Shown here: positions 1 to 17,778 of the stretch, in pieces
How the letters are laid out: each line of letters begins with the position of its first letter
How positions within the stretch are numbered: the first letter of the stretch is position 1
Notes under the pieces: generated by a model
Told to the model about the DNA's origin: nothing
What the model saw: only the letters and a program-made list of their open reading frames with translations
Database searches by the model: none
Translations under genes and position numbers: made by a program
NCBI GenBank assembly: GCA_017512905.1
Contig: JAFWEL010000130.1
Span: 1 to 64,000, forward strand
Source of the DNA: Clostridia bacterium
GTDB lineage: Bacteria > Bacillota > Clostridia > Christensenellales > Aristaeellaceae
Reading direction: 5' to 3'
Length of the DNA: 64,000 bases

Positions 1-37
1 GCCTCGGGTCTGTCATCCCTTCAAAGTATTCGCTCAT
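1..37 (-). CDS. Start of a leftward gene (partial)
   Basis: On the minus strand an ATG at 37-35 follows an AGAGGTG ribosome site about seven bases upstream, and the frame stays open to the window edge (MSEYFEGMTDPR). Only 12 residues are visible, so no function can be given. It would be divergent from the gene starting at 189. Confidence 0.35.
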   Translation of the reverse strand, partial: MSEYFEGMTDPR

Positions 38-188
38 CTCTTTTCACCTCTATGTCTTTCTTCGACATCAGGGGTGAAAAATCCTTTTGGTAATACTTTT
101 GTAATATATTTGATGGCCTGTTAACTCATGCGTTCGCCGTGCACCTTGCCCTGGACGAGGGGCACGACGAAGAAACGGAGGAATTGAA

Positions 189-988: not shown

Positions 989-998
989 GGTGTATCAA

Positions 999-1145
999 AT
1001 GGAGTGCGAGAATTGCGGACAGTCACTGGATCGCGGAGTGCTGGTTCTCCCCTGGGAGGACGGCGATAACCCCACGGCGTATGTAAGGTGCCCTTACTGT
1101 GGGCACAGGAACACGGTATACGGATACGGCGAAGACGACGACTGA
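999..1145 (+). CDS. Small zinc-ribbon protein
   Basis: 48 residues. The ATG at 999 is preceded by GAGG at 987-990. Two CxxC pairs (CENC near the start and CPYC about 28 residues later) form a four-cysteine zinc ribbon, and the C-terminus is acidic. Proteins this small with a single ribbon are common in phage genomes and usually bind nucleic acid or protein, but its role is not known. It is the last gene before a shared terminator. Confidence 0.65.
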   Translation: MECENCGQSLDRGVLVLPWEDGDNPTAYVRCPYCGHRNTVYGYGEDDD

Positions 1146-2109: not shown

Positions 2110-3114
2110 ATGGCAATCCAGATTCACAAGGCAAAACGATCATAGGCGAAGCTCAAGCTGGGCATCGCGGGACCTTCCGGCAGTGGAAAGACGCTGAGCT
2201 CCCTGCTGCTGGGGTACGGGCTCATCAAAGCGGCGCATCCCGGCATGGCGGAGGCTGACATTTGGGAGAAGCTGTGCGTGATCGATACGGAGAACGAGTC
2301 CGGTTCCCTGTACGTCGGCACGGTGGTCAACGGCGTGCGCGTGGGTGAATACCTGACCATCAACCTGGAGGCGCCCTTCAGCGCGGCCCGATACCTTGAG
2401 GCCATCGATGTGGCCGAGCAGAACGGCGTGGAGTTCCTGATCATCGACTCCCTGTCCCACGCATGGTCCGGCGAGGGCGGTCTGCTGGATGTGCAGAGCA
2501 ACATCGCCAAGCGCAGCGGCAACAGCTACACCGCGTGGCGCGAGGTGACACCGCAGCACAACAAGCTGGTAGACCGCGTGCTCCAGTGCCCGATGCACGT
2601 CGCGATCACGCTGCGCACCAAGACGGAATACGTGATCGAGGACAACGGCAACGGGAAGAAGAGCCCGAAGAAGGTCGGCATGGCGCCTGTTTTCAGGGAT
2701 GGCATCGAGTATGAGGTGACGGTGTTCTTCGAATTGAGCCAGGATCATGTGGCCAGCGCCACCAAGGATCGTACCGGCGTGTTCGACGGGCAATTCTTTA
2801 CCATCAACCCGGACACCGGCGCGAAGGTCAGAGCCTGGCTGGAAGGCGCGGACGCTGAGGGTCAGGACAAGCCTGTGATCAAACCGGCAAAGCCTGCCGA
2901 AGCGCCCGGTTCCGATACGGAAGGAATTCCGCTGGCGGAACTGGTCAACCGCACCATGATGAAGCACTGCGAGGGCATGAACGCCGATCAGAAGGCCGTC
3001 GTGGCCGCGAAGCTGAAGCAGATCACAGGCGGCACCGCGAACTACCGCAACATCACCGATGAGGCGATTCTCAGGAAGATCTACGAGACATTCAAGGAGG
3101 ATAACGAGGCATGA
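2110..3114 (+). CDS. Phage AAA-type ATPase (RecA-fold, AAA_24/Sak-like), amber at codon 12
   Basis: 334 residues if TAG is read through. The ATG at 2110 follows a strong AAGGAGG site. A TAG at 2143-2145 is codon 12, just before the first strand of the ATPase core. Walker A is GPSGSGKT at about residues 21-28, and a Walker B-like FLIIDS follows near 112. The family is typical of phage recombination/replication modules, where such ATPases act with SSB on single-stranded DNA, and an SSB gene overlaps its stop (ATGA). Without read-through the only downstream start (2245) would remove Walker A. The exact subfamily is inferred, not certain. Confidence 0.8.
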
Positions 3115-3512
3115 GCATCAACAAATAGGTCGTCGTAGGGCGTTTGACGGCCGATCCCGTCCTTTCGCAGGTTGGCGAAGCCCAGTGCGCCAACTTCACG
3201 ATCGCGTCCGATTCCAATACCAAGGACGCGAACGGTGAGTACATCACCAATTTCTACCGGGCTACCGCATGGCGCAGACAGGCTGAGCTCTGTGCTCAGT
3301 ACCTCCACAAGGGCGATCTTGTGGCTGTCGCCGGAGATCTGTGCATCCGACCGTATCACGACAAGAACGGCACGGAGAGGGTCTCCATCCAGTTGACCAT
3401 CGGCAATATCGATTTCTGCAGAACCAGGAAGAATAACGAACCGGCAGAGGCTGCGCCGCAGGCCGCACCGCAGACCGCGCCGCCGGATGACGACGATGAG
3501 CTCCCCTTCTGA
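3111..3512 (+). CDS. ssb: Single-stranded DNA-binding protein, amber at codon 6
   Basis: 133 residues. The ATG overlaps the previous stop. The OB-fold starts normally (INK-x-VVVGRLTADP) except that x is a TAG at 3126-3128, where other SSBs have Val or another aliphatic residue. The C-terminus has the acidic tip DDDDELPF that recruits replication partners. It coats single-stranded DNA for the primase-helicase and polymerase encoded downstream. With a normal stop at codon 6 no SSB could be made from this start, and the first strand of the fold would be lost from any internal start. Confidence 0.9.
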
Positions 3513-3566
3513 GCCCATACGTCTGGGTAAGTGCGCCAAAAAACTAAGAACGGGAGGCCCAAGGGG

Positions 3567-4121
3567 ATGAAGCTGACTCTTGAGCAGGAAAACGATCTTC
3601 TGATCAGGTATGAACCTTTTCTGAAAAGACGGGTGTAGAACTACATCCAGGATACCCAAAGACATGCCGTTGATTTTGAGGATTACCTACAGGAAGCCCG
3701 ACTGGCGTTTCTGGAGCATATCCGAAAGATGGACAGCATGGAGGAATTGTGCCTGTGCCACTATGACATACTCCATGCCATGCACGCGCAGTTCAGAAAT
3801 ATGGCGCCGTTGCACTTTGCAGCCAATAGTTTCAGCAAAGCGCGCAAAGACTACTCCGTCATCCCTTTGGAATCGGCGGAGGATATGGAGGATCCCGTGA
3901 GCTTTGAGGAACAGGTTGAGTATCGGCTGCTGGCGGAAGATTTCATGAATTCTCTTTCACAGAAGGATCGGCAGATCCTCGATGTGAAAATGAAGGGAAT
4001 CAGGGGTAAGGACGCGGCACGCGCGGCAGGCGTTGGTTCCGAGGCCTGTGTCTCAAGGCGCTTCAGCGGCATCCGGCAAGCATACTATCGTCAGGTCAAA
4101 GGAGTAAGCGCTAATGCGTGA
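3567..4121 (+). CDS. Sigma-70-like factor, amber at codon 24
   Basis: 184 residues. ATG at 3567 follows GGGAGG. The N-terminal part resembles sigma region 2 (a helix with DFEDYLQEARLAFLEHI, like the core-binding helix). The C-terminal part (about 120-175) has a region-4-like helix-turn-helix with KDRQILDVKMKG and KDAARAAGV. TAG at 3636-3638 is codon 24, in the first helix. Phage sigma factors of this size switch host RNA polymerase to phage promoters, so this may control later genes. It overlaps the primase-helicase gene by eight bases. The sigma assignment rests on pattern only. Confidence 0.65.
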
Positions 4122-6930
4122 ATTGATGCTGAGTTTCGCGGATCGCCATCTGTCACCGTATACCCTCCGCGGGGATGAACTGATCCCGGACTTTTGCCCC
4201 ATCTGTCACGGCGGCGACAACCGGGATCGGTACACCTTCGCGCTGAACCTGACGGAGGGCATTTACGTCTGCAAGCGCGGCTCCTGTGGGGCGCGAGGTC
4301 GGTTCGAGGAGCTGGCCAGGCGCTTCGGGGAGCAGGCGGAGATCATAAGACCGCCCGGCAGGATGAAAAAGCAGTACGTCCTGCCGGAGGTGACATTGAA
4401 GCCGCTGAGCGATGAGATCACCGAGTATTTCGGAAAGCGGAAAATCAGTTTTGAGACGCTCGACGCCTTCAAAATCGGCAGCGACGAAAAGGGGAACATC
4501 GTCTTTCCCTTCTACCGGGACAATGTGCTGGTGTACGTGAAATACCGGGCGCCACGCAAACCCCAGCCGAAGGAAAAGAAGGAATGGCAGGCCCACAACA
4601 CTCAGCCGATACTGTTCGGCATGGACATGTGCGCGTTCTCCCAGCCGCTTATCATCACAGAGGGCGAAATCGACACGCTTTCCCTCTACGAGGCGGGCAT
4701 CCGCAACGTAGTCTCGGTGCCCAGCGGCTGTTCCAATCTGGACTGGATCGACACCTGCTGGGACTGGCTGGAGCGATTCCAAAGCATCATTCTTTTCGGC
4801 GACAACGACGAGCCTGGCAGGAAGATGGTGCGCGAGGTCGTGCGCAGGCTCGACGAAGCCCGCTGCATGGTCGTGGAAGAGTATCCCGACAGGCCGGACG
4901 GAACACCCTGCAAGGACGCCAACGAGATTTTGTTCTTCCACGGCGCGGAGGCGCTGAAGGCGACGCTGGACAGTGCCCAGCCCGTGCCGGTGAAGGGGAT
5001 CCTTCAATAGGCGGACGTCGTGCCCTATGATCCGACCACGGTACCGCGCATCAAGACGATGATCCCGGCGCTGGACGCGTAGATCGGTGGGTAGGCAGAA
5101 GGCGCGATGACCGTTTTCACGGGGAAGCCCGGACAAGGGAAACTTCTTAGCGACGATACACCGGTTTTAACGCGAGAGGGGTGGAAAAGACACGGCGATC
5201 TTCGAGTCGGAGATGAGGTAGTTGGCTTGGATGGGGATTTCAAGCGTGTCACAGCGGTGTTTCCCAAGGATTTCGCTGATATGAGAGTCACCTTTTCAAA
5301 TGGTGAAGTGATACACTGCCATCACAATCACGAATGGGTGATTGAGTATCATAGTGGATACACACACAAACAAAGGATAATGACCACAGGTGAGATGTTT
5401 GAGCGCTTCCAGGCTAATGATGGATACCGTGTTGAAAAGAACGGCAAGAAAGGCTATCGATTTAAACTACCACGTCGAACTCCTATGGCGGGGAGCAGAA
5501 AAGAGTTACCGGTTGCGCCTTATACATAGGGCGCATGGCTGGGTGATGGTCGGAATACGAATCCAGACATATGCTCCTCAAAATCAGATTATGCTGTTGT
5601 GGAAAGGATATTACAGGATGGATACAAGATATCATGGCAAACAACGCATAAGACCACGGGATGTATCTATACGGGTTTTCGGGAATTGAGAGCCAAACTT
5701 CACGAATTGGGAATGTGCCATAGCAGGCGTAGAACAGTAAAACATATTCCTGAAGAATACCTGACCTCAAGCTATGAGCAGAGACTTGAACTGTTGGCTG
5801 GACTGCTTGATACGGATGGGTGTTACGATCCGCAAAAGGGTACATATGTTTACTCAACCTGTGAGCCTGCGTTGCGGGACGGAATGATCCAACTGGTGTC
5901 GACCTTCGGATGGAACCATGGTATAAGCCGATATGATCCAAAGGTGTCCAGTTCGGGTGTAATTGGGCGAAGTCCCTGCTATACTGTTACTTTTGCTCCA
6001 AAAGATAATGTACCGTGTGTTCTGGAAAGGAAGAAGGTGAAAAAGATTCACAACCAGTTGAGGATTGCAATCATCAATATTGAGTATTGTGAACCTGTAC
6101 AGGGAAATTGTATCAGTGTTGAAGATGGCATCTACTGTGTTGGAAAAACCATGTTGCCAACACACAACAGTACGCTGACCGGACAATAGCTCCTTGCCGC
6201 GATAGAACAGGGATATTCGGTCTGCGCGTACAGCGGGGAGCTGACGAAGGAGAAATTCCAGGAGTGGATCAACCTCCAGGCGGCGGGTTCGGAGTACATC
6301 GGATTGAAATACGATCCCATCCGCGACGTGAAGATACCCTCCGTGCCGTACGCGGTGCAGGAGAGGCTTCTGGAATACTACCGGGATCACTTCTATCTGT
6401 TTGACAACCAGGAGATCTTCGAAGCCAATCAGTCGGAGAGCATCCTGAAGGTCTTCCAGATGGCGGCGCGCCGTTACGGCTGCAAGCTCTTCCTGGCGGA
6501 CAACCTGATGACGGCACTGTCGGATTCGGATGAAGAGACCAAGGCGCAAGGCAAATTCGCCAACGCGCTGAAGAAGTTCGCCACCCGGTATCACGTCCAT
6601 GTGCTGCTGGTGGCCCACCCGAGGAAGGTCAAGCAGGGTGAGAAACTGGGCCAGGACGACATCGGCGGCAGCAGCGCCACGATTCGGCTGGCGGACAGCG
6701 CCATCGTGGTGGAGCGCCCGAACCTGCGAGTGCTGAAGAACCGCGAGGGCGGCGTGTGCAGGCTGATCGAGTGCTGCTACTGCCCGGACAGCCGCCGCAT
6801 CTACCAGGCGGACAAGGGCGACCTGTGTCGGTTCTCGTGGAATCGCAACGGTATCACGCCGCCGAACCCGCGGGCGGACAGTCTGCCGGAATACGCCGTG
6901 CGCATGGCGGAATCCGCGCAGCCATTCTGA
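4114..6930 (+). CDS. Primase-helicase (TOPRIM plus DnaB-type), intein-containing, five ambers
   Basis: 938 codons in one frame with five TAGs (5008, 5080, 5092, 5527, 6187). The N-terminus has a zinc ribbon (CPIC..CKRGSC). A TOPRIM domain follows, with TEGEID near 185 and LFGDNDEPG near 228. Then comes a RecA-fold helicase core, as in T7 gp4. The helicase Walker A GKPGQGK-ST is split by a 342-residue intein (5143-6168). Two TAGs sit in the segment before Walker A (LDA-x-IGG-x-AEG), where DnaB-like proteins carry Leu. A further motif HVLLVAHPRK is kept after the intein. It primes and unwinds DNA for the DnaE polymerase encoded downstream. Full function needs both UAG decoding and protein splicing. 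Confidence 0.9.
5143..6168 (+). other. Class 3-like intein with LAGLIDADG endonuclease in the helicase Walker A
   Basis: The insert interrupts GKPGQGK/STLTGQ and is 342 residues long. It starts with Leu, not Cys or Ser, and ends LPTHN before the +1 Ser. Block B ends NHEW, block F has NCISVE and block G has Thr before His-Asn. That W-C-T set is the signature of class 3 inteins, which use the block F Cys as nucleophile. Two LAGLIDADG motifs are present: T-x-GAWLGDG (x = TAG at 5527) and LLAGLLDTDG. The DNA is clearly more AT-rich than the flanking gene, as expected of a mobile insert. Confidence 0.85.
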
Positions 6931-6942
6931 CGGAGGAACAAT

Positions 6943-7707
6943 ATGTGTGAGATTCCCAATGATATGAAATGGTCTTTCAGCAAGTAGCAGCTCTACGACC
7001 AGTGCCCGCTGGCGTTCAAGTAGCAGTACATCGACAAAGTACCGCAGGAGCAAAACAGCTTTGCGGAGTATGGGACGCATTGCCACAGCCTGCTGGAACG
7101 CTGGGCCAAGGGCGAGCTTATGTCCTTCGAGCTGGCCGACGCTTATGAGGCTGAGTACGATGAGGCCGTGAAGCACTACTTCCCGCCGTTCCCGAAGGGA
7201 CTGGCCGGCAGGTATTACGACGAGGGCCTTCAATACTTCCGCTCCTTTGACGGTTTCGGAGACGACATGGAGATTCTGTCGGTAGAGGACAAGTTTGAAC
7301 TGGACATCCGCGACAATCGGTTCGTAGGCATCGCGGATCTGGTGCTGAGGGACAGGAATTCCGGCGGCATCACGGTAATTGACCACAAATCGAAGTCCAT
7401 GAACTCCATGAAGAAGGCGCAGTACGAGAACACGCGCCAGCTGTACACCTACGCGGCCTACGTGAAGGAGCGCTTCGGGGCGTTTCCGACCCTGTTGCGA
7501 TTCAACATGTTCCGCTACGGCGTGAACATCGACGAGCCCTTCAGCAGGGATCGGTACGCGGAGACGATGGACTGGATCGAGCGAACCATCGCGGAGATCA
7601 AGGCTGAAAAGGAGTGGAAGGTGTCGTCCTCCGGCTACTTCTGCCGGTTCATCTGCTCCACGCGCCTGTATTGCCCGATTGCCGGGGAGATCATGAACGC
7701 GAAATAA
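6943..7707 (+). CDS. PD-(D/E)XK nuclease (RecB/Cas4-like), two ambers near the start
   Basis: 254 residues. ATG at 6943 follows CGGAGG. The N-terminus carries the usual opening of this family, a Ser/Lys helix followed by YDQCPLAFK and QYIDK. TAG at 6985 and 7021 (codons 15 and 27) occupies the two positions that are normally Leu in it. The catalytic core has Asp of GIADLV near 132 and IDHKS near 146-150 (D..DxK). Such nucleases process DNA ends in phage replication or recombination. The only sizeable in-frame product after the TAGs would start at 7120 and lack the N-terminal region. Confidence 0.8.
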
Positions 7708-7728
7708 CAGACAATGGGAGAAATGCCT

Positions 7729-7881
7729 ATGAGCATTGAGCAGCACATCCAGGTCATGGTGGCCTGGGCGGATATCCTGATCGTGACCGCAGGGTACATA
7801 CTGATCCGGGTGATCGTCGTGATCGTCTGCGTCACCGTCATCATCTTTATCGTCAGGAGGGTTTACCGTGGAATCCGATAA
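7729..7881 (+). CDS. Small membrane protein
   Basis: 50 residues. ATG at 7729 is eight bases after GGGAG; an ATG at 7714 is possible but has no ribosome site. Residues about 13-43 are almost wholly hydrophobic (Ile/Val-rich), followed by a basic tail. The gene has no TAG and overlaps the GTG start of the polymerase gene by 14 bases. No family is recognised. Confidence 0.6.
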   Translation: MSIEQHIQVMVAWADILIVTAGYILIRVIVVIVCVTVIIFIVRRVYRGIR

Positions 7882-10800
7882 GATTCTCACGCTGCCGGGC
7901 GGGACGTAGATTCGGGCGTCTCCCGAAGGGGAAACCGCGTCGGCAGCCGATATTCCCTATGTCAACTACCACCGCCACACCTGCTACAGCAACGTGATGC
8001 TGACGGACAGCGTGGTGACGAACGAGGACTACGCCAGGCGCGCCGTGGAGCTGGGTCACACCGTCCTGTCCTCCTGCGAGCACGGCACCCAGGGCAACTA
8101 CTGGCAGTGTTCCGAACTGGCGAAGCAGTACGGCCTGCGCTGGCGGTATGTGAGCGAAGCGTACTTCGTGAAGGACCGGCGCGAGAAGGACAACGCCAAC
8201 TGCCATCTGATTCTGGCGGCCAAAACCCGCAAGGGCATCGGCGATCTGAACTTCGCGCTGTCCGAGGCGAATATCAGCGGCTACTACTACCGCCCGCGGG
8301 TGGACCTGGAGCTGCTGATGGCGCTCGATCCCAGGGACGTGTTCGTCACAACGGCCTGCGTCGGCGGGGTATACAAGTACGGCTGGGAGGAGGCCGAAAA
8401 GTTGATCCTCCGAATGGCTAGCCACTTCCGGGACAGCTTCATGCTGGAGGTGCAGTATCACGACACCGACAAACAGCGGGAGGTCAACCGATTCCTGCTG
8501 GGGCTGTACCGCAAGCACGGCATCCCGCTGATCATGGGTACGGACAGCCATTTCATCTACCCGGAGGACGCCGCGCTGAGGGATCAGCGGCTGGAGGCCA
8601 ATCGCATCCGCTATGAGGACGAGGGCGGTTGGTATATGGACTACTCCTCCGGCACGGAGGCATACCGTCGCTTTCGGCAGCAGGGCGTGCTGTCCGACGC
8701 GCAGATTCGGGAGGCGATGGAGAACACCGGCATTTTCCTGACCTTTGAGGATGTGGAGTTCGACAAATCGAAGAAGCTGCCGACGATCTATCCCGATCTT
8801 ACGCAGGAGGAGCGAAACCAGAAATATCTCACGCTGGTCAACGAAGCGTTTGAAGCCCAGACTGCCGGCATGACCGCGGATGACAAGGCGATACGTGCCG
8901 AGGGTGTGGAATACGAGACCAACGTGGTGACCTCCACCAACATGAGCGACTATTTCCTTCTCGACCATGAGATTGTGCGCCGCGCCGTGGAGAAGGGCGG
9001 CATCATCACGAAGACCGGGCGTGGCAGCGCACCCAGCTACTATACCAACTCGCTGCTGGGGCTGTCGTCCATAGACCGCTTCGCCATCCCGGTGGAGATG
9101 TTCCCGGACCGCTTCATATCGGCGGACAGGATCCTGTCGGGCAGCCTGCCGGACATCGACATGAACATCGCCAACCGGGAGGCCTTCGAGGAAGCCCAGG
9201 CGGAGGTCGTCGGCGAGTGGCGCAGCGCGCCCATGGTGGCCTTCGGCACGCTGAAACGGCTGTCGGCGTGGAAGATGTTCTGCCGGGCGGCGAACCTGTC
9301 CTTCGACATCGCCAACGAGGTGGGCAATCAGCTGAAGGCTTACGAACAGGCGGTCAGGTTTGCCGAGGAGGATGAGGAAGTCGTATTGTCGGACTTTGTG
9401 CCCGCGCAGTACCGCGAGCTGGTGGAGGCCAGCGAGCAGTACATGGGCGTAATCGACTCCATATCGCCGCATCCGTGCGCCTATCTGCTGTGCCGGGATG
9501 ACATACGACGGGAGATCGGCATCATCCGCCTGAACAGCAAGGGCGGGAAGAAGAAAACGGTGTTTGCCGCTTTCATCGACGGCGCGACGGCGGAACAGTT
9601 CGGTTACCTTAAAAATGACCTGCTCCTGGTCGAGGTCGTCAAGACCAACCATGAGGCGTTCCGCCGCATCGGCATGGAGCAGCCGGATGTGAACGCGCTT
9701 CTGAGGCTCGTCGCCAACGACCGGGAGACCTGGCGCATGTATGCGGATGGCCTGACAATGGGGCTGAACCAGGTGGAGCAGCCCAAGACCCGGGAGAAGG
9801 TCATGCAGTACAAGCCGAGGAACATCACGGAGCTGGCGGCCTTCGTGGCGGCGGTGCGACCGGCCTTCAAGTCCATGCTGCCGGTATTCCTTGCCAGGAA
9901 GCACTTTGACTACGGCATTCCAGCCTTCGATAAGCTGATCCAGACCCGGGAGATGACCTCCAGCTTCATACTGTTCCAGGAGCAGCTAATGAAGACGCTC
10001 CAGCACGCGGGATTCACCGCACCGGAATCCTATGCCGCCATCAAGGCCATCGGCAAGAAGCACCCGGAGAAGGTGCTGCCGCTGAAGCAGCGCTTTCTGG
10101 AAGCCTTTGCCGCAAAAAGCGATATGGCTTCCGCTGAAAAGGTGTGGAGGATCATAGAGGACGCTACGAGCTATGGTTTCAATAGTTCGCATGCTGTCTG
10201 CGTCGCCCTGGATTCCCTCTACGGCGCGTGGCTGAAGGCGCACTATCCCCTGGAATACTACACGACGCTGCTCTCCGGCTACGCGGCGAAGGGCGACAAG
10301 GATCGCATCGCGCTGGTCAAGGAGGAGATGCAGCGGGGCTTCGGAATCCGCGTGGTGCCCTGCAAATTCCGGCAGGACAACCGCGATTTCTACATCGACC
10401 ACGCCGGGAACACGATCTCGGACGCATAGAGCTCGGTCAAGCACGTCAGTCGAAAAGTGGCGGACGCGCTGTACAGGATGCAGGACGAATTCTACGTCTG
10501 CTTCACCGACCTGCTCTACGACATGGAGGTCCATCCGGCCTTTGATTCGCAGGTGATCGAAATCTTGATACGACTGGACTACTTCAGGGAATTCGGCGGG
10601 AGCGGCAAATTGTAGAAGCTCTACCGAGAATTCCGCAACGGGGAATTCCGATTCTCCAAGACGCACATTCAGAAGACCCAGGAAGCCCGGCTGAAGATCC
10701 TCCGCAGGCTGGAGGGTGAAATGCCGGAAGAGGAGATCCCGCCGCGTGAGCTGATCCGCTTCGAGATCGAGCACTGCGGCACGCCCGTGAGCACCTTCCC

Positions 10801-11062
10801 GGAGCTGCGCGACGAATACGCCGTGCTGGAGGTGGACGACCGCTACAGCCCCAGGGTCAAGCTGTGCAGCCTGGCCACAGGACGGATGGGCGTCATGAAG
10901 CTCAAGAAAGCGCTGTTCAAGACCAAACCGTTGGAAGCTGGGGAGATACTTCGACTGCTGTCATGGGAACGCAAGCCCGCCTACACCTATGTGGATGGCA
11001 AGGCGCGTCCCCGCCACGACACCTGCGACCTCTGGATCACCGGCTACGAAGTGGTCGTGTGA
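7868..11062 (+). CDS. dnaE: DNA polymerase III alpha subunit (PHP-DnaE type), three ambers
   Basis: 1064 residues. A GTG start follows AGGAGG. The N-terminal PHP domain opens with YHRHTCYS. The polymerase core has GRGSAP near 383 and PDIDMN near 428, the latter giving two catalytic Asp. TAG codons are 7907 (codon 14), 10427 (854) and 10613 (916). The second falls in ISDA-x-SSVKHVS, where DnaE proteins have Leu before the helix-hairpin-helix. The domain order is that of bacterial DnaE, without a 3'-5' exonuclease. It would be the replicase of the element. The suppressor tRNA begins 34 bases after its stop. Confidence 0.92.
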
Positions 11063-11096
11063 TTCACGGCGGCTGGCGGCAATGCCGGCCGCATGG

Positions 11097-11181
11097 GGGA
11101 GCATGGTGGAATTGGCAGACACGGAGGTCTCTAAAACCTCTGCCGGAAGGCGTGCGAGTTCAAGTCTCGCTGCTCCTACCA
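11097..11181 (+). tRNA. Leucine-type suppressor tRNA, anticodon CUA (reads UAG)
   Basis: 85 bases with encoded CCA (11179-11181). The acceptor stem GGGAGCA/TGCTCCT has a G-U first pair. The D stem is GTG/CAC with loop GAATTGGCAGA. The anticodon stem is GAGGT/ACCTC and its loop CTCTAAA gives anticodon CTA at 11131-11133 after T33. The variable arm of 13 bases (TGCC-GGAA-GGCG) makes it class II, and the T arm is GCGAG/CTCGC. A73 and the D-loop pattern are those of bacterial tRNA-Leu; tRNA-Ser has G73 and a longer arm. Loop positions 36-38 are AAA, the MiaA recognition sequence. It lies inside the operon, between dnaE and the remA-like gene. Confidence 0.93.
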
Positions 11182-11183
11182 CA

Positions 11184-11200
11184 ATCCCCACGACGGGGAT
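11184..11200 (+). other. Small hairpin after the tRNA
   Basis: ATCCCC-ACGAC-GGGGAT forms a 6-bp stem starting two bases after the encoded CCA. There is no T tract, so it is unlikely to terminate. It may help 3' processing of the tRNA out of the operon transcript. Confidence 0.45.
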
Positions 11201-11219
11201 GAGAATGGAGGTATAGACA

Positions 11220-11546
11220 ATGGGAACCAATCAGTAGCGCTTTGTTCATGTGGGCTTCGGCAACATGCTCTGCGCGAACCGCATCGTGGTGATCCTGACA
11301 CCCGGTACGGCCTGCGCGAAGCGATAGCTGAAGAACGCCAAGGAACACAAGCTGCATTTCGACCTGTCGTTCGGCAGGACGACCAAGGCGCTGATTCTCC
11401 TGGAGGACGGCAGGGTTGTCAGCTGCGCCCTGACACCCAGGACCATCGGCGCGAGAATCGACGCGATTCCCGGCGACGGGATCGCAGAAGGAGAGAACGA
11501 ACATGAAGATCATCAGGCAGACGGCGAAGATACTGGCTCCGAATGA
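11220..11546 (+). CDS. RemA-like (DUF370) DNA-binding regulator, two ambers
   Basis: 108 residues. ATG at 11220 follows GGAGG. The body matches RemA: FVHVGFGNMLCANRI, then an R-x-LKNAKEH segment, FGRTTKALILL and VVSCALTP. TAG at 11235 (codon 6) and 11325 (codon 36); the second aligns with Ile in B. subtilis RemA (KR-I-IQEA). RemA is an arginine-rich DNA-binding activator of biofilm genes in Firmicutes. A phage-borne copy right after the suppressor tRNA is unusual. The acidic C-terminal 40 residues are not part of RemA and overlap thyX by 44 bases. Confidence 0.8.
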
Positions 11547-12117
11547 CGGCGCGGAAGCCCTTCGCCGAATCGAACAGGCCGGTCGCAACTGCTACCGATC
11601 CGAGGGGAAGATCACGGCGGACAGCGCGCCGGGCTTTGTGCGGGGATAGATCCGGCGCGGGCACCTGTCTCCGCTGGAGTTCGCGGACATGACCGTGGAG
11701 TTGGTCACCTCCCGGGACGTCATGGCTGAGATCACCCGGCACCGGCTGGCCAGCTTTGCCATAGAGAGCCAGAGATATGTATGTATGAACGGCGAGATCG
11801 CCTTTATCGAACCGGAATGCTTCATTTCCGGCGACACGGCCTCCGCAATCTGGCGCATCAGCATGGCGGAATCCGAGAGGACCTATCACAAGCTGCTGGA
11901 ATGCGGCTGGCTGCCGCAGGACGCGAGGAAGGTGCTGCCCAACTCGACGGCGACGCGCATCGTGATGAAGGCCAACCTGCGGGAGTGGCGGCATATCTTT
12001 GCGCTGCGCACCAGCCCGGCGGCCTATCCTGAGATTCGGGCATAGATGGCCGAACTGCTGGAGCAGGCGAAAAAGACCATCCCCGTGGTCTTCGACGATC
12101 TGGAGGCGGCGGAGTGA
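11503..12117 (+). CDS. thyX: Flavin-dependent thymidylate synthase ThyX, two ambers
   Basis: 204 residues. ATG at 11503 follows AGAAGGAG. The ThyX motif RHRLAS followed by ESQRYV is present, as are ARKVLPNSTATRIVMKANLRE and the terminal EIRA segment. TAG at 11647 (codon 49, in VRG-x-IRRGHLSP) and 12043 (codon 181, in EIRA-x-MAELL) both take positions that are Leu or another hydrophobic residue in ThyX. The enzyme methylates dUMP with methylene-folate and FADH2, supplying dTMP for replication. It joins NrdD/NrdG and the Nudix gene in a nucleotide-supply block. Confidence 0.92.
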
Positions 12118-12335
12118 GCGTCGTCCTCTACACGAATCACTGCCCCTGCTGCGAGGTGCTGGAGAGCAGGATGAAAGCCGCAGGCATCCGTTACAGGGCC
12201 GTGGACGACGTCCGCATGATGCTGGAGATGGGCCTGACCACGATGCCCATGCTGGAGACGGACGATCTGATGATGAACTATCCGGCTGCGCTGAAGTGGC
12301 TGGAGGAAAGGACGAAAACGACGAATGAGAATTGA
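12114..12335 (+). CDS. Glutaredoxin-like protein
   Basis: 73 residues, from a GTG that overlaps the thyX stop. A thioredoxin-fold start (VVLYTNHCPCCEVLE) carries a CPCC redox motif. The cis-Pro loop is TTMPML and the end contains a Glu-rich helix. It probably transfers electrons to an enzyme encoded nearby, perhaps the ribonucleotide reductase; its size and place resemble NrdH/glutaredoxins of phages. It has no TAG. Its stop overlaps the nrdD start by 11 bases. Confidence 0.75.
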   Translation: MSVVLYTNHCPCCEVLESRMKAAGIRYRAVDDVRMMLEMGLTTMPMLETDDLMMNYPAALKWLEERTKTTNEN

Positions 12336-15300
12336 CAAGTACCGGGATCACGCCGCGCATTAGGACTTCATCGCCCGCTACGGCAGGGCGTCCAACGCCG
12401 CCACAGGCAGCGAGGTCGATCCCAACGCCAATGTGGAGAACAAGAACATCGCCACGCTGGAGACGGAGATCTACAAGCGAGACGCCATCGCCATCAACCG
12501 GCTGGGGATGTACCGGAAGCTTCAGGAGCTGTACGGCACCGACACCGCGGAGGAATACCTGCGGCAACTGGAGGAGCACGAGATCTACAGGCACGATGAA
12601 ACGGGCATTCTGGGCAAGCCGTATACATATGGGGCGAAGGAAGCAGTCATTGTGAAAACGCCTTTCGGTGTGAAACTCGTTTCTCTTGAAGACATGTATG
12701 ACATGTGTTCTGAGCCAGCGGTAGTTGTTGACACAAAAAATCGTGTGGCGCAGAAGTACCCGATTGATTGGTATGTCCTCGATCGGAACGGCTATACCAA
12801 AGTGACCGCCATTACGAAAAAGGAACGCCATAGGGATCTGGTTAGTGTTAAGACACAGTTTGGGGAGGATGTGATCGTTACCGATAATCACCCGATGATT
12901 GTAAGCGATGATGTCAACGACACCGTCGAGGCAATCGATTCCCTGGACAAACCTCAGTATTCTTGCGACTGGGATGATGATACTGTTGGAGCCCATATCA
13001 AAGATAGCGCCTGCGTTGCTATCGGTGATAACTACAATCTCTATACCATCGTCCGTCGTGGCAACTACCATCACATTTCGGCCCCGAACATAAAGTTCGA
13101 CGAAGATTTAGGGTATTTCCTTGGATTCTTTGTCGCTGAGGGTTGGTTTGCCGCCATGCCTAACTATCATTCATATGGGATGATGATTAAGGTGAAGGGT
13201 ACCGAGGATTTGCACAAATGCTGTGATGCCCTGTTTAGATCGACAGGCATAGTCGCATTTATTCAGGAACATGAGGACTGGCGAGGATTACGGACGCTGA
13301 AGGTTTCGCATCCTGATTTTGTGGATTTTTGCATGAACAAGATGCGCTTGGGCCGGAAAGCGCCCGAGAAGAAATGCCCGATTGATATTCTGGAATACCC
13401 GAAATCCTTCAGGCAGGGCTTTATCGCGGGCCTCATTGACGGGGATGGCACTCTCGACGACAGGGGACGAGCACTTATCAGGCTCAGTTCAAGGACATGC
13501 GTCAGTCAGCTTTCTTATGTCTTGAAGAGCTTAGGAGTACCGTCTTCAATGACATATGGCGACTATTCTGGAAATGAAGACGCTTTGATCAAGTCGTCAT
13601 TCCCCTGTTTCGGGATTGCTTTCCCGATGAGCGATTTATTCTCGATGTCCCGCAAATACCAGGGGGTACTGCCAAAGTTCAATAAACATCCTTCTGGATG
13701 GGGAAAGGTGCGCAGTGTCAAGCCGATACAAAATGAGTATTTCCTTCGGGATAATGAGTTTATCTATGATATAACGACTGAGTCCCATTCGTTTATGCTC
13801 AACAACATTTGGGTACACAACTGCGCCAGCGTGACCCTTTATCCGTTCCTGTTCCACGGGAACACCTGCATCGGCGGCACTAGCGAGGCTCCGAAGAACC
13901 TGGCGTCGTTCAACGGCGCGTTCATCAACCTGGTATTCGCGCTGGCCAGCCAGTTCTGCGGCGCGATCTCCACGCCGGAGTGGTTGAGCTACATGGACTA
14001 CTTCATTCGCAGGGAGTACGGGGAGGATTACTACCTGTATCCCGAGAAGGCTGCGGACCTGTCGTTCAGGAACAGGACAATCGACAAGGTGATCACTGAC
14101 AGCTTCGAGCAGGTGGTGTACTCCCTGAACCAGCCCGCCGCGGCGCGAGGCAACCAGTCCGTGTTCTGGAACATTGCCTACTTCGACGCTCCGTACTTCA
14201 AGGGCATGTTTGAGGATTTCGTGTTCCCGGACGGCACCCCGATGAAGTGGGAATCTGTGAGCTGGCTCCAGAAACGGTTCATGAAGTGGTTCAATCAGGA
14301 ACGTCGGCGCAAGCTGCTGACCTTCCCGGTGGAGACGGTCAACCTGCTGGACGACGGTTCGGATTTCGTCGATCAGGAATGGGCGGACTTCACCGCCGAG
14401 ATGTGGGCGGAGGGACACAGCTTCTTCCTGTATCGCTCCGATTCGGTCGATTCGCTGGCATCGTGCTGTAGACTAAGGAATGAGCTTCAGGACAACGCTT
14501 TCTCCTATACGCTCGGCGCGGGCGGTGTGGCCACGGGAAGCAAGTGCGTGATGACGATCAACGTGAACCGCCTGGTCCAGAACGCTATCTGGGACGATCC
14601 CATGAACGACATCCGCGAAGCGATGGGGGTCATGGTCGGGAAGGTCCACAAGTATCTGCTGGCCTTCAATGACATTCTTACAGAGCGCCGGGAAGCCGGG
14701 CTGCTGCCGGTTTACGACGCGGGCTTCGTCACGCCGGAAAAGCAGTACCTGACGGTAGGCATCAACGGCTTCATCGAAGGCGCGGAATCACTGGGGATAG
14801 AGCCGGACGCCGACAACCTTGACTATGTGAAATATGCCGAAGCAGTTCTCCAGCCAATCTATGAGGCAAACCGCAGGGATCGTACTGAGGATATCATGTG
14901 GAATTGTGAAATGGTGCCCGCGGAAAATCTCGGCGTGAAGAACGCCGCATGGGATAAAGCGGAAAAACTGTTCGTCCCGAGAGATTGCTACAACAGCTAC
15001 TTCTTCCGCGTGGAGGACCCGAAGGTGAATGTGCTGGACAAGCTGAAGCTGCACGGCAGGGAATTCACCCGGTATCTGGACGGCGGTACCGCCTGCCACA
15101 TCAACCTGGACGAGCATCTGACGAAGGAGCAGTACGCGCTGCTGCTGAGGGCGGCGATCCGCACGGGCTGCAACTACCTGACCTTCAACGTGCCGAACAC
15201 GCTGTGCCGGCAGTGCGGGTACATCAGCAAGCACCGGCTGGACAAGTGCCCCAGGTGCGGCAGCGACGATCTGGATTACGCCACCCGGGTAATCGGGTAC

Positions 15301-15399
15301 CTGAAGCTGGTCTCCCGGTTCGCGGAGGCTCGGCAGGAAGAGGCCGGACGGCGTCATTACTCGAAGGGACTGGAGGAGGATCATGAGCCGAGTGATTAA
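12325..15399 (+). CDS. nrdD: Anaerobic ribonucleotide reductase NrdD with intein, amber at codon 13
   Basis: 1024 codons including a 399-residue intein (12625-13821), leaving a mature protein of about 625 residues. TAG at 12361 is codon 13, just before the conserved region VDPNANVENKN. After the intein come CASVTLYPFLFHG, the core barrel, a four-Cys zinc site (CRQC..CPRC) and the glycyl-radical loop RVIGY followed by RRHY. It reduces ribonucleotides to deoxyribonucleotides without oxygen, after activation by NrdG (15806). The conserved KPY/C extein junction holds the first active-domain Cys, so splicing is needed for activity. Confidence 0.93.
12625..13821 (+). other. Intein with LAGLIDADG endonuclease in NrdD, Thr at position 1
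   Basis: The insert lies between KPY and CASVTLYP. Block B has TDNH, block F has YDITTESHSFML, and the end is VHN before +1 Cys, all canonical. The two endonuclease motifs are LGFFVAEG and AGLIDGDG. The first residue is Thr (TYGAKEAVIV), not Cys, Ser or Ala. There is no Cys at block F position 4 and no block B Trp, so it is not class 3. There is no TAG inside. The insert is more AT-rich than its host gene. Confidence 0.85.
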
Positions 15400-15580
15400 G
15401 AATCCCGACGAGGTTTTCGTCCGAAATCTCAAAAAGCGGATCAAGAACAACAACGGCTACTGCCCCTGCAAGTTGGAGAAGAAGCCGGACAACAAGTGTC
15501 CCTGCAAAGATTTCCGCGAGGGCCGGGGCTGCGACTGCGGATAGTACATCGAAATGCCGGAGGATGAAGAGAAATGCTGA
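15383..15580 (+). CDS. Ferredoxin-thioredoxin reductase-like Fe-S protein, amber at codon 54
   Basis: 65 residues, overlapping the end of nrdD by 17 bases. The Cys pattern CPC..CPC..CDC is that of the catalytic subunit of ferredoxin:thioredoxin reductase, which binds a 4Fe-4S cluster and a redox disulfide. TAG at 15542 follows CDCG and precedes YIE; the family normally reads CHCGLY, so the TAG stands for Leu. A stop here would leave all the cysteines, so this is the one gene in which truncation might be tolerated. It could deliver electrons to NrdD/NrdG or the glutaredoxin. Confidence 0.75.
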
Positions 15581-15819
15581 TTTGTGTCGAGTGCGAGCGG
15601 GTTTTCGATCAGCCCAGACATATCGTTGAGCGCCACGGGCTGGATACGCCGCCCTATGAAGAATACGACGCCTGCCCGTACTGCTTCGGCACAAACATCC
15701 ATCCGGCCAGGACGTGCGATGTGTGCGGCAAGTGGCTGACAGGCGGCTACATCAAGACCATTGACGGGCAGCGTATCTGCGATGGCTGCTATACCGCGAG
15801 GGACGTTGGGGACGACTGA
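15574..15819 (+). CDS. Double zinc-ribbon protein
   Basis: 81 residues, beginning at an ATG that overlaps the previous stop. Four CxxC pairs (CVEC, CPYC, CDVC, CDGC) suggest two zinc ribbons, with a His-rich stretch after the first pair. No catalytic motif. It lies between the FTR-like gene and nrdG and has no TAG. Role unknown. Confidence 0.6.
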   Translation: MLICVECERVFDQPRHIVERHGLDTPPYEEYDACPYCFGTNIHPARTCDVCGKWLTGGYIKTIDGQRICDGCYTARDVGDD

Positions 15820-16294
15820 TCCTCCGCTGAAATATGTGGAGCATGCCGTGACCATGGCGGAGGCGCCGCTGGAAATCAGCCTGACGATCTCGATTTCCAA
15901 CTGCGCCTTCCGCTGCCACGGATGCCATTCACAGTATTTGCAGGAGGACGTGGGAAAACCGCTGCTCCCGGACCTGCAAGGGATCATTGAGCGGTACAAA
16001 GGGCTGATCTCCTGCGTTTGCCTGATGGGCGAAGGCCGAAATCCCGCGGAATAGCGCGAGGCATAGCGCATAATACATGAAAACGGTCTGAAAACCTGCC
16101 TGTACAGCGGTAACGACGATGATAAGGCGTTTCAACACGTCTACGGCCTTCTGGATTACCTCAAAACAGGGCATTACGACGAAAAACTGGGCGGTTTGGA
16201 CTGCCCAATGACCAATCAGCGATTCTACCGCCTCGAAAACGGACGGTTGATCGATAGAACATCATTATTTCGAGAGAGGAAGGTGAAAAAATGA
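15806..16294 (+). CDS. nrdG: Anaerobic RNR-activating radical-SAM protein NrdG, two ambers
   Basis: 162 residues from a TTG at 15806 (GAGGG lies just upstream; a GTG further on is possible). The radical-SAM motif is CAFRCHGC, the CxxxCxxC that binds the 4Fe-4S cluster. TAG at 16052 and 16064 lies in NPAE-x-REA-x-RIIHENGLKT, where the family has Leu at both places. The product makes the glycyl radical of NrdD using S-adenosylmethionine. The stop overlaps the ATG of the Nudix gene. Confidence 0.87.
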
Positions 16295-16938
16295 CGCCGG
16301 AACAGTACAGAGAGAAGTACGGCGACGCCAAAATCATGGTCGTGCCCATGAAGGCGCTTGACGGCTTATAGAAGGAGGGCTTCACCTGCAGGAAGGACGC
16401 CGTTTTCAAGAAAAACGGCGAATCCGTGCCCCTGGGACATATCATCTTCGACAATCTGACGCCGAAACTCCGCTGCGAGGCGGAATGCGATCCGTCCTTC
16501 AAGCAGATCATCCCGTATGTGCTGGTAGAGCACAAACCCACGGGACGATACTTCATGACAACGCGGATCGGAGGTGAAGAACGCCTCAAGGGGCAGGCCA
16601 GCATCGGCCTCGGCGGTCATCTGGAAGACGGAGAGGACGTCGTTGACGCCCTGTTCCGCGAGTTGGAGGAGGAAATCGGTCTGGAGAAGGATCAGATGTC
16701 CGAAATCCAGCTCTGCGGGTACATCTACAGCGAGCTCAACGAGGTGGACAGCGTCCATTTGGGCGTGGTATACCATGCGCTCACGGATCGGGAGGACATT
16801 GTCTGCCGGGAACACGACAAACTGGTCGGAGGCTGGTTCACAGTGCCCCAGATGAAGGAAGCCCGGCGCAACGGCTACATGGAATCCTGGAGCGCGGTCT
16901 GTTTTGACGCGCTGCTGGACGAGGAGGATGAGGATTAA
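16291..16938 (+). CDS. Nudix hydrolase, amber at codon 27
   Basis: 215 residues, with ATG overlapping the nrdG stop. The Nudix box GGHLEDGEDVV..ALFRELEEEIGL fits GX5EX7REUXEEXGU and lies around residues 110-132. TAG at 16369 is codon 27 (ALDGL-x-KEGF), before the fold begins. Nudix enzymes hydrolyse nucleoside diphosphates linked to another group; here it may clean the nucleotide pool or act on a signalling nucleotide. The substrate cannot be told from sequence. Confidence 0.8.
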
Positions 16939-17279
16939 TGGCTGTGATCCTGGGAGTACAGCCCGACGTGCCAACTGAGGTCAACGAGAACGGCGGTCGG
17001 CAGTCCGCAACGCCGTATGCGTTCCACTTCCTGCCGCCGCACGCGCTGTTCGCCGCTGCTGAGGTGGCAAAATATGGCGCTGAGAAGTACGGCGAGACGC
17101 TTCTCAATCGGAATTACAAGAAGATCCCGCCGGAGGAACACGTCAACCATGCCATCCAGCACTTGTTCGCATACCTCGCCGGGGATGAAAGCGACAACCA
17201 CCTGAGTCACGCCATCCTCCGGGCGATGTTCGCCTATGAGGTCGATCATGAGCGAGACCGGATAGACGGCGAGGCATGA
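16938..17279 (+). CDS. DUF5664-like (MazG-type fold) protein
   Basis: 113 residues, with ATG overlapping the Nudix stop by one base. The helical core has LLPP-type HFLPPHALFAAAEV, YGAEKYGE, EEHVNHAIQHLFAYLAGD and a final HAILRAMFA. The two HxxxH-like helices resemble the dATP/dGTP pyrophosphohydrolase-type proteins found in many phages. A role in shaping the dNTP pool is likely but inferred. No TAG. It overlaps the start of the ruvC-like gene by 32 bases. Confidence 0.7.
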   Translation: MAVILGVQPDVPTEVNENGGRQSATPYAFHFLPPHALFAAAEVAKYGAEKYGETLLNRNYKKIPPEEHVNHAIQHLFAYLAGDESDNHLSHAILRAMFAYEVDHERDRIDGEA

Positions 17280-17778
17280 CGCCTTCCGCATCCTTGCCGC
17301 CGATCTTTCGTAGAGATGTCCGGGGTTCGCCATTCTGCGATATGACAGCGGCAAGGTGACGGTGGAGAGGCTTTGCCACCTGAACAACCGTGGCGAGAAG
17401 AAGAGCCACGGGCAGATCCTTGCCGAGATTTATGCTATGATAACCGAACTGGCCGTGGACGTTGCCGTATTCGTGCGGGAAAAAGGCTTTTCCCGATTCC
17501 CACACGAGACCCAGGCGCTCTTCAAAGTTGTAGGGGTAGCTGATTTGGCGGCGTGGATGACATGCCGGACAGAATTCGTGGAGATAGCACCGACGACGGT
17601 GAAAAAGCTGCTTGCGGGGTCAGGGAAAGCCACAAAGGAAGAAGTGGCTACTGCTCTGGAGACATATGTTGGTAATCATAAGTACGAAGTCGATGATGAA
17701 AGTGATGCACTGGCAGTAGGTATATGCTATTTGATTCAAATAGGCATGTAGAAAATTAAACACAAAAATGAAGCATAA
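17248..17778 (+). CDS. RuvC-like Holliday-junction endonuclease, two or three ambers
   Basis: 176 codons from an ATG after GAGG. The RuvC fold opens ILAADLS-x-RCPGFAIL, where x is TAG at 17311 and the family has Leu after DxS. Another TAG is at 17263 (codon 6). Later Asp/Glu residues (REKG, DDESDALAV) fit the other metal sites. A third TAG at 17749 is followed by eight codons and TAA at 17776; it is either the true end or a last read-through. The enzyme would resolve branched replication intermediates. It is the last gene of the operon. Confidence 0.8.

What the first reader, a model, noticed from the sequence alone, without database searches (positions are those of the whole stretch)
2110..17778. 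Whole replication operon uses TAG as a sense codon
Thirteen genes in this run carry in-frame TAG (first bases 2143, 3126, 3636, 5008, 5080, 5092, 5527, 6187, 6985, 7021, 7907, 10427, 10613, 11235, 11325, 11647, 12043, 12361, 15542, 16052, 16064, 16369, 17263, 17311, 17749). Known protein families continue across each one in the same frame. No in-frame TAA, TGA or frameshift interrupts any of them, so decay is not the explanation. The genes end in TGA or TAA. The host genes to the right have no internal TAG, and at least five end in it (34996, 39003, 47947, 50652, 51885). So a recoded element sits in a chromosome that uses the standard code.
Basis: partly seen in the sequence, partly recalled or inferred. 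Interest (0 to 1): 0.95.

Follow-up and report, generated by a model that had tools for sequence, protein, structure and literature searches.

The report
Prophage operon reads TAG as leucine
A virus lodged in a bacterial chromosome has DNA-copying genes studded with the stop signal TAG and carries its own matching transfer RNA, which likely makes TAG mean leucine, so that these genes would be made in full only once that tRNA is switched on.

Summary
Confirmed. All 25 listed triplets are in-frame TAG, in 13 of 17 CDS (5,162 codons), with no in-frame TAA or TGA. The stretch 2110-17778 is phage DNA: like operons lie beside integrases in other Clostridia MAGs and in IMG/VR phages whose terminase, portal and endolysin genes also carry TAG. 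Opposite TAG stands leucine: 70.5% of weighted residues in 137 columns, Gln 4.5%; in outside homologues up to 113 of 113. So UAG is likely read as Leu, not Gln. Nine recoded polymerases form one clade (100/100). TAG crowds into the first 30 codons (37 of 136, against 154 of 2,114 Leu codons), which suggests a translational gate (inferred). Recoded prophages in standard-code hosts are known; UAG=Leu in phages did not appear in my searches. Open: no expression data; virion genes not found in this MAG; an ICE may share the insertion.

The parts
1..141 (.). edge of a multicopy sequence (probably an IS; its - strand looks like a transposase start, by eye) at which contig C175 breaks off
   Evidence: 100% and 99% copies at the starts of contigs C73 and C48; homology to relative G172 begins at 142
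189..1145 (+). three small phage accessory genes (189-650, 647-988, 999-1145), no TAG
   Evidence: 92-98% identical to a block of G172:C43
1933..1961 (+). promoter-like site TTGTCA-17-TATAAT upstream of the operon (predicted only)
   Evidence: 11 of 12 consensus matches (4 such sites in the region, 0.9 expected)
2110..3114 (+). AAA_24 ATPase; TAG at 2143
   Evidence: Pfam PF13479
3111..3512 (+). SSB; TAG at 3126
   Evidence: Pfam PF00436
3567..4121 (+). sigma-factor-like protein; TAG at 3636 (codon 24 of 184)
   Evidence: phrog_1740, E 5e-8; no Pfam hit
4114..6930 (+). primase-helicase with intein; TAG at 5008, 5080, 5092, 5527 (in the intein), 6187
   Evidence: Toprim, AAA_25, weak LAGLIDADG_3; residues at TAG in homologues
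6943..7707 (+). PD-(D/E)XK nuclease; TAG at 6985, 7021
   Evidence: PF12705
7868..11062 (+). DNA polymerase III alpha; TAG at 7907, 10427, 10613
   Evidence: PHP, DNA_pol3_alpha, DNA_pol3_finger
11097..11181 (+). tRNA with anticodon CUA, class II, Leu-type D-arm: the presumed suppressor tRNA-Leu(CUA), CCA encoded
   Evidence: ARAGORN, Rfam tRNA 52.4 bits, compensatory pairs, D-arm and discriminator
11220..11546 (+). small protein of unknown function; TAG at 11235, 11325
   Evidence: no PHROG
11503..12117 (+). ThyX thymidylate synthase; TAG at 11647, 12043
   Evidence: PF02511
12325..15399 (+). anaerobic ribonucleotide reductase NrdD with intein; TAG at 12361
   Evidence: PF13597, Intein_splicing
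15383..15580 (+). small protein; TAG at 15542
   Evidence: phrog_38239, unknown function
15854..16294 (+). unknown protein, perhaps an NrdD activase (by eye and position only); TAG at 16052, 16064
   Evidence: no Pfam or PHROG hit
16291..16938 (+). NUDIX hydrolase; TAG at 16369
   Evidence: PF00293
16938..17279 (+). dATP/dGTP diphosphohydrolase-like protein, no TAG
   Evidence: PF18909
17248..17778 (+). RuvC-like nuclease; TAG at 17263, 17311, 17749; phage homology ends near its 3' end
   Evidence: PF02075
18246..20456 (+). large serine recombinase, no TAG, fused in frame to the C-terminal part of host SpoVT (about residues 583-736)
   Evidence: Resolvase, Recombinase, Zn_ribbon_recom, SpoVT_C; SpoVT-sized frames without it in most other genomes of the genus
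19992..20000 (+). GGGGACCCG shared with the other half of spoVT on contig C176: presumed att core
   Evidence: two other 9-base matches occur in the same comparison, away from the break; split SpoVT

Best explanation
The operon at 2110-17778 is the replication operon of an integrated phage in which UAG is a sense codon, most likely read as leucine by the phage's own tRNA-Leu(CUA) encoded inside the same run of genes (11097-11181). Shown: 25 in-frame TAG and no other in-frame stop; leucine opposite TAG in relatives and in outside homologues; a tRNA gene with a CUA anticodon, a leucine-type D-arm and compensatory base pairs; one recoded clade among phages without in-frame TAG in the same gene; TAG in replication and virion genes of that clade but few in the block between them. 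Inferred: the tRNA is processed out of the operon transcript, charged by host LeuRS, and competes with host RF1 at UAG. Inferred further: because TAGs sit early in many genes (SSB codon 6, ATPase codon 12, sigma-like factor codon 24), leaky transcription in the lysogen would yield short peptides, and full replication proteins and the sigma-like factor would appear only after the operon is transcribed strongly enough to build up the tRNA, which then would also open the late genes.
For: In-frame counts. tRNA. Residue: 160 TAG columns in 42 families, 137 informative, Leu 70.5% weighted (8.5-fold over background), Gln 4.5%; Leu share 0.63-0.91 in each of 11 contigs (G302 duplicates part of G303). 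Outside homologues, found with TAG entered as Gln so that the query could not favour Leu: window helicase codon 299 Leu 110 of 113, codon 327 Leu 113 of 113, codon 692 Leu 74 of 113; window ThyX codon 49 Leu 108 of 110, codon 181 Leu 92 of 110. TAG-against-sense sites that are Leu codons, ten pairs of contigs: 1 of 1, 7 of 12, 17 of 20, 17 of 20, 5 of 6, 17 of 20, 21 of 25, 43 of 51, 16 of 25, 14 of 19. Leu-type D-arm, discriminator A while the four host Ser tRNAs have G. RF1 present, no PylS over cut-off. Tree: 9 recoded rows one clade, 100/100. 22 of 22 readable non-recoded polymerase loci have no in-frame stop, and in none of 28 such loci (L112-L139) did ARAGORN type a CTA tRNA. Compartments in G300: TAG/(TAG+Leu) 0.099 in the virion block, 0.077 in the replication operon, 0.0045 in the block between; Fisher p 9e-19 and 6e-13. 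Early placement: the first 30 codons hold 37 of 136 TAG and 154 of 2,114 Leu codons; against TTA/TTG 24 of 239, p 3e-5; columns counted once 18 of 73 against 59 of 551, p 0.002.
Against: No expression, charging or peptide data. Not every site is Leu-like in outside homologues: helicase codon 323 is Ala 39, Thr 17, Leu 7 of 113; in relatives, G300 helicase codon 403 is Gln in 109 of 113, codon 168 Asn 50 and Leu 46, codon 439 Ile 66 and Leu 36; G303 ThyX codon 18 shows no Leu among its eight commonest residues, codon 67 Leu 54 and Ile 53. Window against G060 gives Leu codons at only 7 of 12 swaps. The rest of the prophage is not in hand: the portal was found in none of G000, G060, G172, G186, G045 or G301 and only as a piece in G031, so this copy may be defective. 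How RF1 is outcompeted is unexplained: no RF2 and no LeuRS in the four phage records (0 of 4 each, possibly fragments). The early placement may come from mis-set starts (partly controlled) or from the lower cost of aborting early; taken singly it is clear in five of seven phages (p below 0.05), not in G301 (p 0.057) or G031 (1 of 12, p 0.43). Overall identity of the tRNA to host tRNAs does not single out Leu. One TAG-poor block of G301 (1 TAG in 25 genes) could not be assigned to virion or accessory genes.
Confidence: 0.87

Rival explanations
1. UAG is read as glutamine (code 15), as in most recoded gut phages.
For: Code 15 is the common TAG recoding (PMC11210395, part 1 of 3 read). A few sites align with Gln (4.5% weighted; 109 of 113 at one G300 site).
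Against: Leu at 70.5%, Gln at 1.25 times background; Leu 113 of 113, 110 of 113 and 108 of 110 at conserved window sites; the tRNA has a long variable arm and a Leu-type D-arm; that tRNA-Gln lacks a long variable arm is general knowledge.
Confidence: 0.03
2. UAG is read as pyrrolysine, as ARAGORN's label tRNA-Pyl suggests.
For: ARAGORN printed Pyl for each CTA anticodon it met here.
Against: PylS search of the genome: best 23 bits against a cut-off of 178; 13 of 14 control genomes also ring, one over the cut-off. Leu at conserved sites.
Confidence: 0.01
3. The genes are decaying; the TAGs are nonsense mutations in a dead prophage.
For: The contig breaks at a repeat and the portal is not found in this MAG.
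Against: No TAA or TGA in 5,162 codons; third-position excess after the first TAG; TAG sites shared across MAGs and phages and exchanged with Leu codons; conserved tRNA.
Confidence: 0.02
4. TAG is sense Leu, but its placement has no regulatory role: recoding was fixed after a tRNA-Leu(CUA) arose, and TAGs persist near gene starts only because losing a ribosome to RF1 there costs least.
For: Early placement is also expected from cost alone. A single clade is recoded.
Against: The scarcity of TAG in the middle block and integrase frames that are complete without reading TAG are not explained by this alone, unless those genes are newly acquired.
Confidence: 0.35
5. The operon is a phage module inside an integrative conjugative element in spoVT, and not a prophage with that attachment site.
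For: The other half of spoVT on C176 is next to RepA_N, ParB, TraG and DUF3801 genes; the serine recombinase stands where G060, G172 and G186 carry a tyrosine integrase, and the best other recombinase match in 27 genomes of the genus is 35% identical.
Against: The bases left of the operon (142 onward) are collinear with G172 at 93%, as in a larger phage element; C175 and C176 are not joined by sequence.
Confidence: 0.3

Closest known systems
Code-15 (TAG=Gln) recoded gut phages, e.g. crAss-like phages and phAss-1
   Same: TAG sense codon in phage genes, often a CTA suppressor tRNA, standard-code host; TAG in late or structural genes (passages of PMC7886860 and PMC10607447)
   Different: residue is most likely Leu and the tRNA Leu-type; the replication operon with its polymerase is recoded nearly as heavily as the virion genes
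Recoded prophages in standard-code hosts (Borges et al. 2022; recalled, and seen only as cited in PMC10746230; the paper itself is not held)
   Same: alternative code in an integrated phage, host code standard
   Different: I could not check whether UAG=Leu or this clade is among them
Theta-ribozyme-linked suppressor tRNAs (PMC10879173, passages and section 9 read)
   Same: phage CTA tRNA thought to take part in a code switch
   Different: 180 of their tRNAs were typed Gln 69.4%, Trp 19.4%, Ile 10.0%, Tyr 1.1%, none Leu; beside this tRNA Rfam gave no ribozyme (whether Rfam holds the theta type was not checked)
skin and SP-beta type insertions in sporulation genes (PMC5595907, PMC4191935; listing and start of abstract only)
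   Same: element inserted in a sporulation gene (here spoVT)
   Different: excision during sporulation not testable here; the recombinase frame is fused to the gene's 3' part

Membership tests
Recoded (stop-codon reassigned) prophage in a standard-code host | one stop codon in frame throughout phage genes, used as stop by host genes | tested here: met
   25 TAG, 0 TAA/TGA in 17 CDS; 5 of 38 host-side genes end in TAG
Recoded (stop-codon reassigned) prophage in a standard-code host | phage-encoded suppressor tRNA for that codon (common, not universal) | tested here: met
   11097-11181, CTA
Recoded (stop-codon reassigned) prophage in a standard-code host | integrated in the chromosome together with virion genes | tested here: inconclusive
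   integrated; virion genes seen in relatives G300 and G303, portal not found in this MAG
Code 15 (TAG=Gln) phage | TAG aligns with Gln | tested here: not met
   Leu 70.5%, Gln 4.5%
Pyrrolysine decoding | PylS in the genome | tested here: not met
   best 23 bits, cut-off 178
skin-like sporulation element | inserted in a sporulation gene with a shared core at both ends | tested here: met
   split SpoVT with shared GGGGACCCG
skin-like sporulation element | regulated excision restores the gene in the mother cell | not testable with these tools
   needs sporulating cultures

The most novel reading that the evidence does not exclude
A lineage of temperate phages has reassigned UAG to leucine with its own tRNA-Leu(CUA) and uses it as a translational safety catch on replication: TAGs are packed into the first 30 codons of replisome and sigma-like genes, the tRNA lies nine kilobases down the same operon, and integrase and accessory genes are kept in the host's code, so that lysogeny is enforced by the genetic code itself as well as by repressors.
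Probability: 0.45. Interest if true: 0.87.

Novelty: new variant of a known kind. Interest (0 to 1): 0.74.

Why it matters
It would add leucine to the meanings that phages appear to give UAG, shows recoding that covers the polymerase and replication genes and not only late genes, and offers a single recoded clade next to relatives without in-frame TAG, so that the order of events (tRNA first, TAG later) can be studied. The 5' placement of TAG gives the open question of why phages recode a direct test. If TAG is Leu here, annotation under code 15 prints the wrong residue at the TAGs of these phages.

Tried and rejected
Rejected: Gln, Pyl, decay, assembly error (see rivals). Tried without result: Rfam scan of 10700-11700 for a ribozyme near the tRNA (only the tRNA); plasmid search with the operon, no match; INPHARED tblastn with the polymerase, 1,303 records, all under 60% identity; literature on spoVT, prophage and serine recombinase together, 0 papers; RF2 and LeuRS in the four phage records, 0 of 4 each. 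Overall tRNA identity does not separate isotypes: for the window's tRNA a Ser tRNA scores highest over a short aligned part (59 of 69), so the isotype claim rests on the D-arm, the discriminator and the aligned residues. An exact pattern of the tRNA was found in 5 of 308 genomes of the family (G045, whose tRNA differs, is missed) and in 3 viral records (L070 is new and was only scanned for tRNAs). I first read TAGs in two relatives' integrase frames (G300 three, G303 one) as evidence against standard-code integrases; one search shows them at codons 526, 529 and 532 of 533 and at codon 5, the latter probably a start extension, so the frames are nearly complete without reading TAG. Dropped from the tree: L127, L128, L129, L138 (frame unreadable) and L011 (frameshift in that assembly, the same contig as G172:C43); L135, L137, L140 not used (partial). 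Its seven P rows count as non-recoded only because they are full-length predicted proteins. The residue counts use automatic gene calls without cleaning, and G302 and G303 are copies over at least the first 5,000 bases tested. The 5' test used 7 of 11 recoded contigs, leaving out G060C20, G060C59, G172C43 and G302 (near copies or a remnant).
Full report
Observation. One search reads TAG at all 25 listed positions. Under TAG=sense the stretch 2110-17778 holds 17 CDS with 5,162 codons, of which 13 CDS carry the 25 TAGs; there is no in-frame TAA or TGA, and the CDS end in TGA (12) or TAA (5). In all six frames of the stretch TAG makes up 175 of 827 stop triplets, so that 25 of 25 being TAG has a chance of about 1e-17. 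On the host side 38 genes called with code 11 end in TGA 22, TAA 11 and TAG 5. Pfam families found in the operon: AAA_24, SSB, Toprim with AAA_25, PDDEXK_1, Pol III alpha, Thy1, NRDD, NUDIX, dGTP_diPhyd_N, RuvC; a sigma-like factor by PHROGs.

What it is. The window is the first 64 kb of contig C175 of a 209-contig MAG. It starts in 141 bases that also start two other contigs, the edge of a repeated element. Relatives of the Pol III alpha gene at 72-97% identity and with 3-4 TAG over the matched part were found in five other genomes of the host family, G060, G172 (in two pieces, 2 and 1 TAG), G186, G045 and G031, among 300 drawn, and in four IMG/VR records, one of which (G302) repeats part of another (G303). 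In G060, G172 and G186 the operon is followed by a tyrosine integrase (Pfam), in G045 and G303 by a frame of similar sequence (not scanned). tRNA genes follow directly in G060, G186 and G045, and about 2 kb on in G172. In G300 and G303 the same phages also have a virion block: terminase with 8 TAG and portal with 6 TAG in G300, portal, a head protein and an endolysin in G303. So the operon is phage DNA.

The insertion. In the window the phage homology ends near 17,676-17,724 and is followed by a serine recombinase whose frame runs into the C-terminal part of SpoVT; SpoVT residues 1-33 lie on contig C176. Both halves share GGGGACCCG at the break. In the genus, SpoVT C-terminal matches without a recombinase in front were listed for 25 of the other 27 genomes, in open frames of about 147-258 codons; in G245 and G282 they are in pieces, and G270 and G278 show only weak recombinase matches. 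Next to the C176 half are RepA_N, ParB, TraG and DUF3801 genes, so the insertion may be an ICE with a phage in it. The two contigs are not joined, and the order of events is open.

The tRNA. ARAGORN finds a CTA-anticodon tRNA at 11097-11181, 34 bases after Pol III alpha and 38 before the next gene; its Pyl label follows from the anticodon. Rfam scores it 52.4 bits. It occurs in 9 of the 11 related contigs that carry a TAG-bearing Pol III alpha; the two without it are G302, whose contig ends before the place where its copy G303 has the tRNA, and G060:C59, a remnant with most of the polymerase missing. In 8 of the 9 it follows the polymerase within 34-62 bases; in G303 about 14 kb lie between. 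On 9 sequences (8 distinct) 99.0% of 192 cells pair in the cloverleaf with variable arm, and 15 of 24 pairs have changes on both sides, a number that no shuffle of 500 reaches (of the five measures only the number of pair types was reached, by 6 of 500). The D-arm GGTGGAATTGGCAGACAC is that of host tRNA-Leu(CAA) and (CAG) save for one compensated pair, unlike the four Ser and one Tyr tRNAs fetched; the discriminator base is A, while those Ser tRNAs have G. Its anticodon differs from that of tRNA-Leu(CAA) by one base, a possible origin (inference).

The residue. Across 42 protein families of the 14 sequences, 160 alignment columns hold a TAG; in 137 some other sequence has a sense codon, and weighted per column these are Leu 70.5%, Val 4.7%, Gln 4.5%, Ile 4.4% (automatic gene calls, not cleaned). 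By contig the Leu share is 0.63 to 0.91 (11 contigs). For homologues from a general protein collection I entered TAG as Gln in the query, which cannot favour Leu: of 113 helicases kept of 120 listed, Leu stands at window codon 299 in 110, at 327 in 113 and at 692 in 74, while codon 323 is variable (Ala 39, Leu 7); of 110 ThyX kept of 120, Leu stands at codon 49 in 108 and at 181 in 92. The intein's TAG site has Leu in the 4 homologues that reach it. In the relatives some sites do not fit: G300 helicase codon 403 is Gln in 109 of 113, codon 168 Asn 50 and Leu 46, codon 439 Ile 66 and Leu 36; G303 ThyX codon 18 shows no Leu among the eight commonest residues. A homologue search for Pol III was also run; seven of its proteins went into the tree, none into residue counts.

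Function is kept. Between the window and G172, after the first TAG of each gene, differences fall at codon positions 1/2/3 as 90/62/421 over 3,040 codons. TAG and Leu codons replace each other: over ten pairs of contigs the TAG-against-sense sites are Leu codons in 1 of 1 (window/G172), 7 of 12 (window/G060), 17 of 20 (window/G186), 17 of 20 (window/G300), 5 of 6 (G186/G300), 17 of 20 (window/G045), 21 of 25 (window/G303), 43 of 51 (G300/G302), 16 of 25 (G301/G300) and 14 of 19 (window/G301).

One clade. A tree of 38 Pol III rows puts the 9 recoded rows on one side of one branch (100/100), among phages without in-frame TAG (midpoint root).

Compartments. TAG as a share of TAG plus Leu codons in G300 is 0.099 in the virion block, 0.077 in the replication operon and 0.0045 in the 62 called genes between (5 TAG); in G303 0.057, 0.049 and 0.048 (two parts of the operon), and 0.0038; in G186 0.070 in the operon and 0.0022 in the middle block. 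A block of 25 genes in G301 with 1 TAG could not be assigned. The middle block of G186 has ArdC, a reverse transcriptase, GP88 and a second integrase; that of G303 a reverse transcriptase and a methyltransferase-like protein. Integrase frames next to the operon have no TAG in G060, G172, G186 and G045 nor in the window; in G300 the TAGs lie at codons 526, 529 and 532 of 533 and in G303 at codon 5, so all can be read nearly whole in the standard code.

Early placement. In 66 proteins of 7 phages, counting only columns filled in at least four contigs, 37 of 136 TAG but 154 of 2,114 Leu codons lie in the first 30 codons; within-gene permutation never reached this in 5,000. It holds against AT-rich Leu codons TTA and TTG (24 of 239, p 3e-5) and with each column counted once (18 of 73 against 59 of 551, p 0.002). 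The direction is the same in all seven phages; singly, p is below 0.05 in five, 0.057 in G301 and 0.43 in G031. For the window 10 of 22. Start errors may remain, and the phages are related.

Mechanism. Shown by sequence: TAG as sense, Leu opposite TAG, tRNA gene, one clade, compartments, early placement. Inferred: host LeuRS charges the tRNA (no LeuRS in 4 of 4 phage records), it competes with host RF1 (present at 510 bits; no phage RF2 in 4 of 4 records), and the operon opens itself as the tRNA builds up. The sigma-like gene with TAG at codon 24 would pass the gate on to late genes (speculative). A cost-only reading of the early TAGs stands as the main rival. That 2110-17778 is one transcript rests on gene order only.

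Known and new. Recoded phages and recoded prophages in standard-code hosts are known (passages in PMC10746230, PMC7886860, PMC10607447 and PMC13037316; part 1 of 3 of PMC11210395). Borges et al. 2022 is not held and is cited from recall and second hand. In the section of PMC10879173 that I read, 180 phage suppressor tRNAs are typed as Gln, Trp, Ile and Tyr, none Leu. Searches with leucine terms brought no phage with UAG=Leu in titles or in the passages I read; subscription papers were not searchable. I did not search for reports of early placement of recoded codons.

Noticed in passing
window 18246-20456 and L005:7355-7561 (C176): Serine recombinase frame fused to the 3' part of spoVT; the 5' part lies on another contig beside RepA_N, ParB and TraG genes: an insertion in a sporulation regulator, possibly skin-like.
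   Followed up: partly
window 4114-6930 and 12325-15399: Inteins with LAGLIDADG-type domains in the primase-helicase and in NrdD; the helicase intein itself carries a TAG (5527). The G172 genes are shorter and seem to lack them.
   Followed up: partly
L040:12253-13491 (G186) and L066:5663-6940 (G303): Reverse transcriptase in the TAG-poor middle block of relatives; whether it is a diversity-generating retroelement was not checked.
   Followed up: no
L052:238-4155 (G060:C59): Remnant of a second recoded prophage with most of the polymerase and the tRNA missing.
   Followed up: no
L046:3807-6921 (G172:C43): Pol III alpha is split in two frames in this assembly, apparently by a frameshift.
   Followed up: no
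L057:18032-19633 (G300): Integrase frame has three TAGs in its last eight codons, so this phage gene may keep TAG as its stop.
   Followed up: partly
L050:10443-11360 (G017:C135): Pol III alpha fragment, 73% identical, with one in-frame TGA, next to a tRNA array: looks like a decayed relative.
   Followed up: no
G282:C56:1-462 and G282:C107:1-126: spoVT of another genome of the genus lies in two pieces at the starts of two contigs, possibly another insertion there or a plain assembly break.
   Followed up: no
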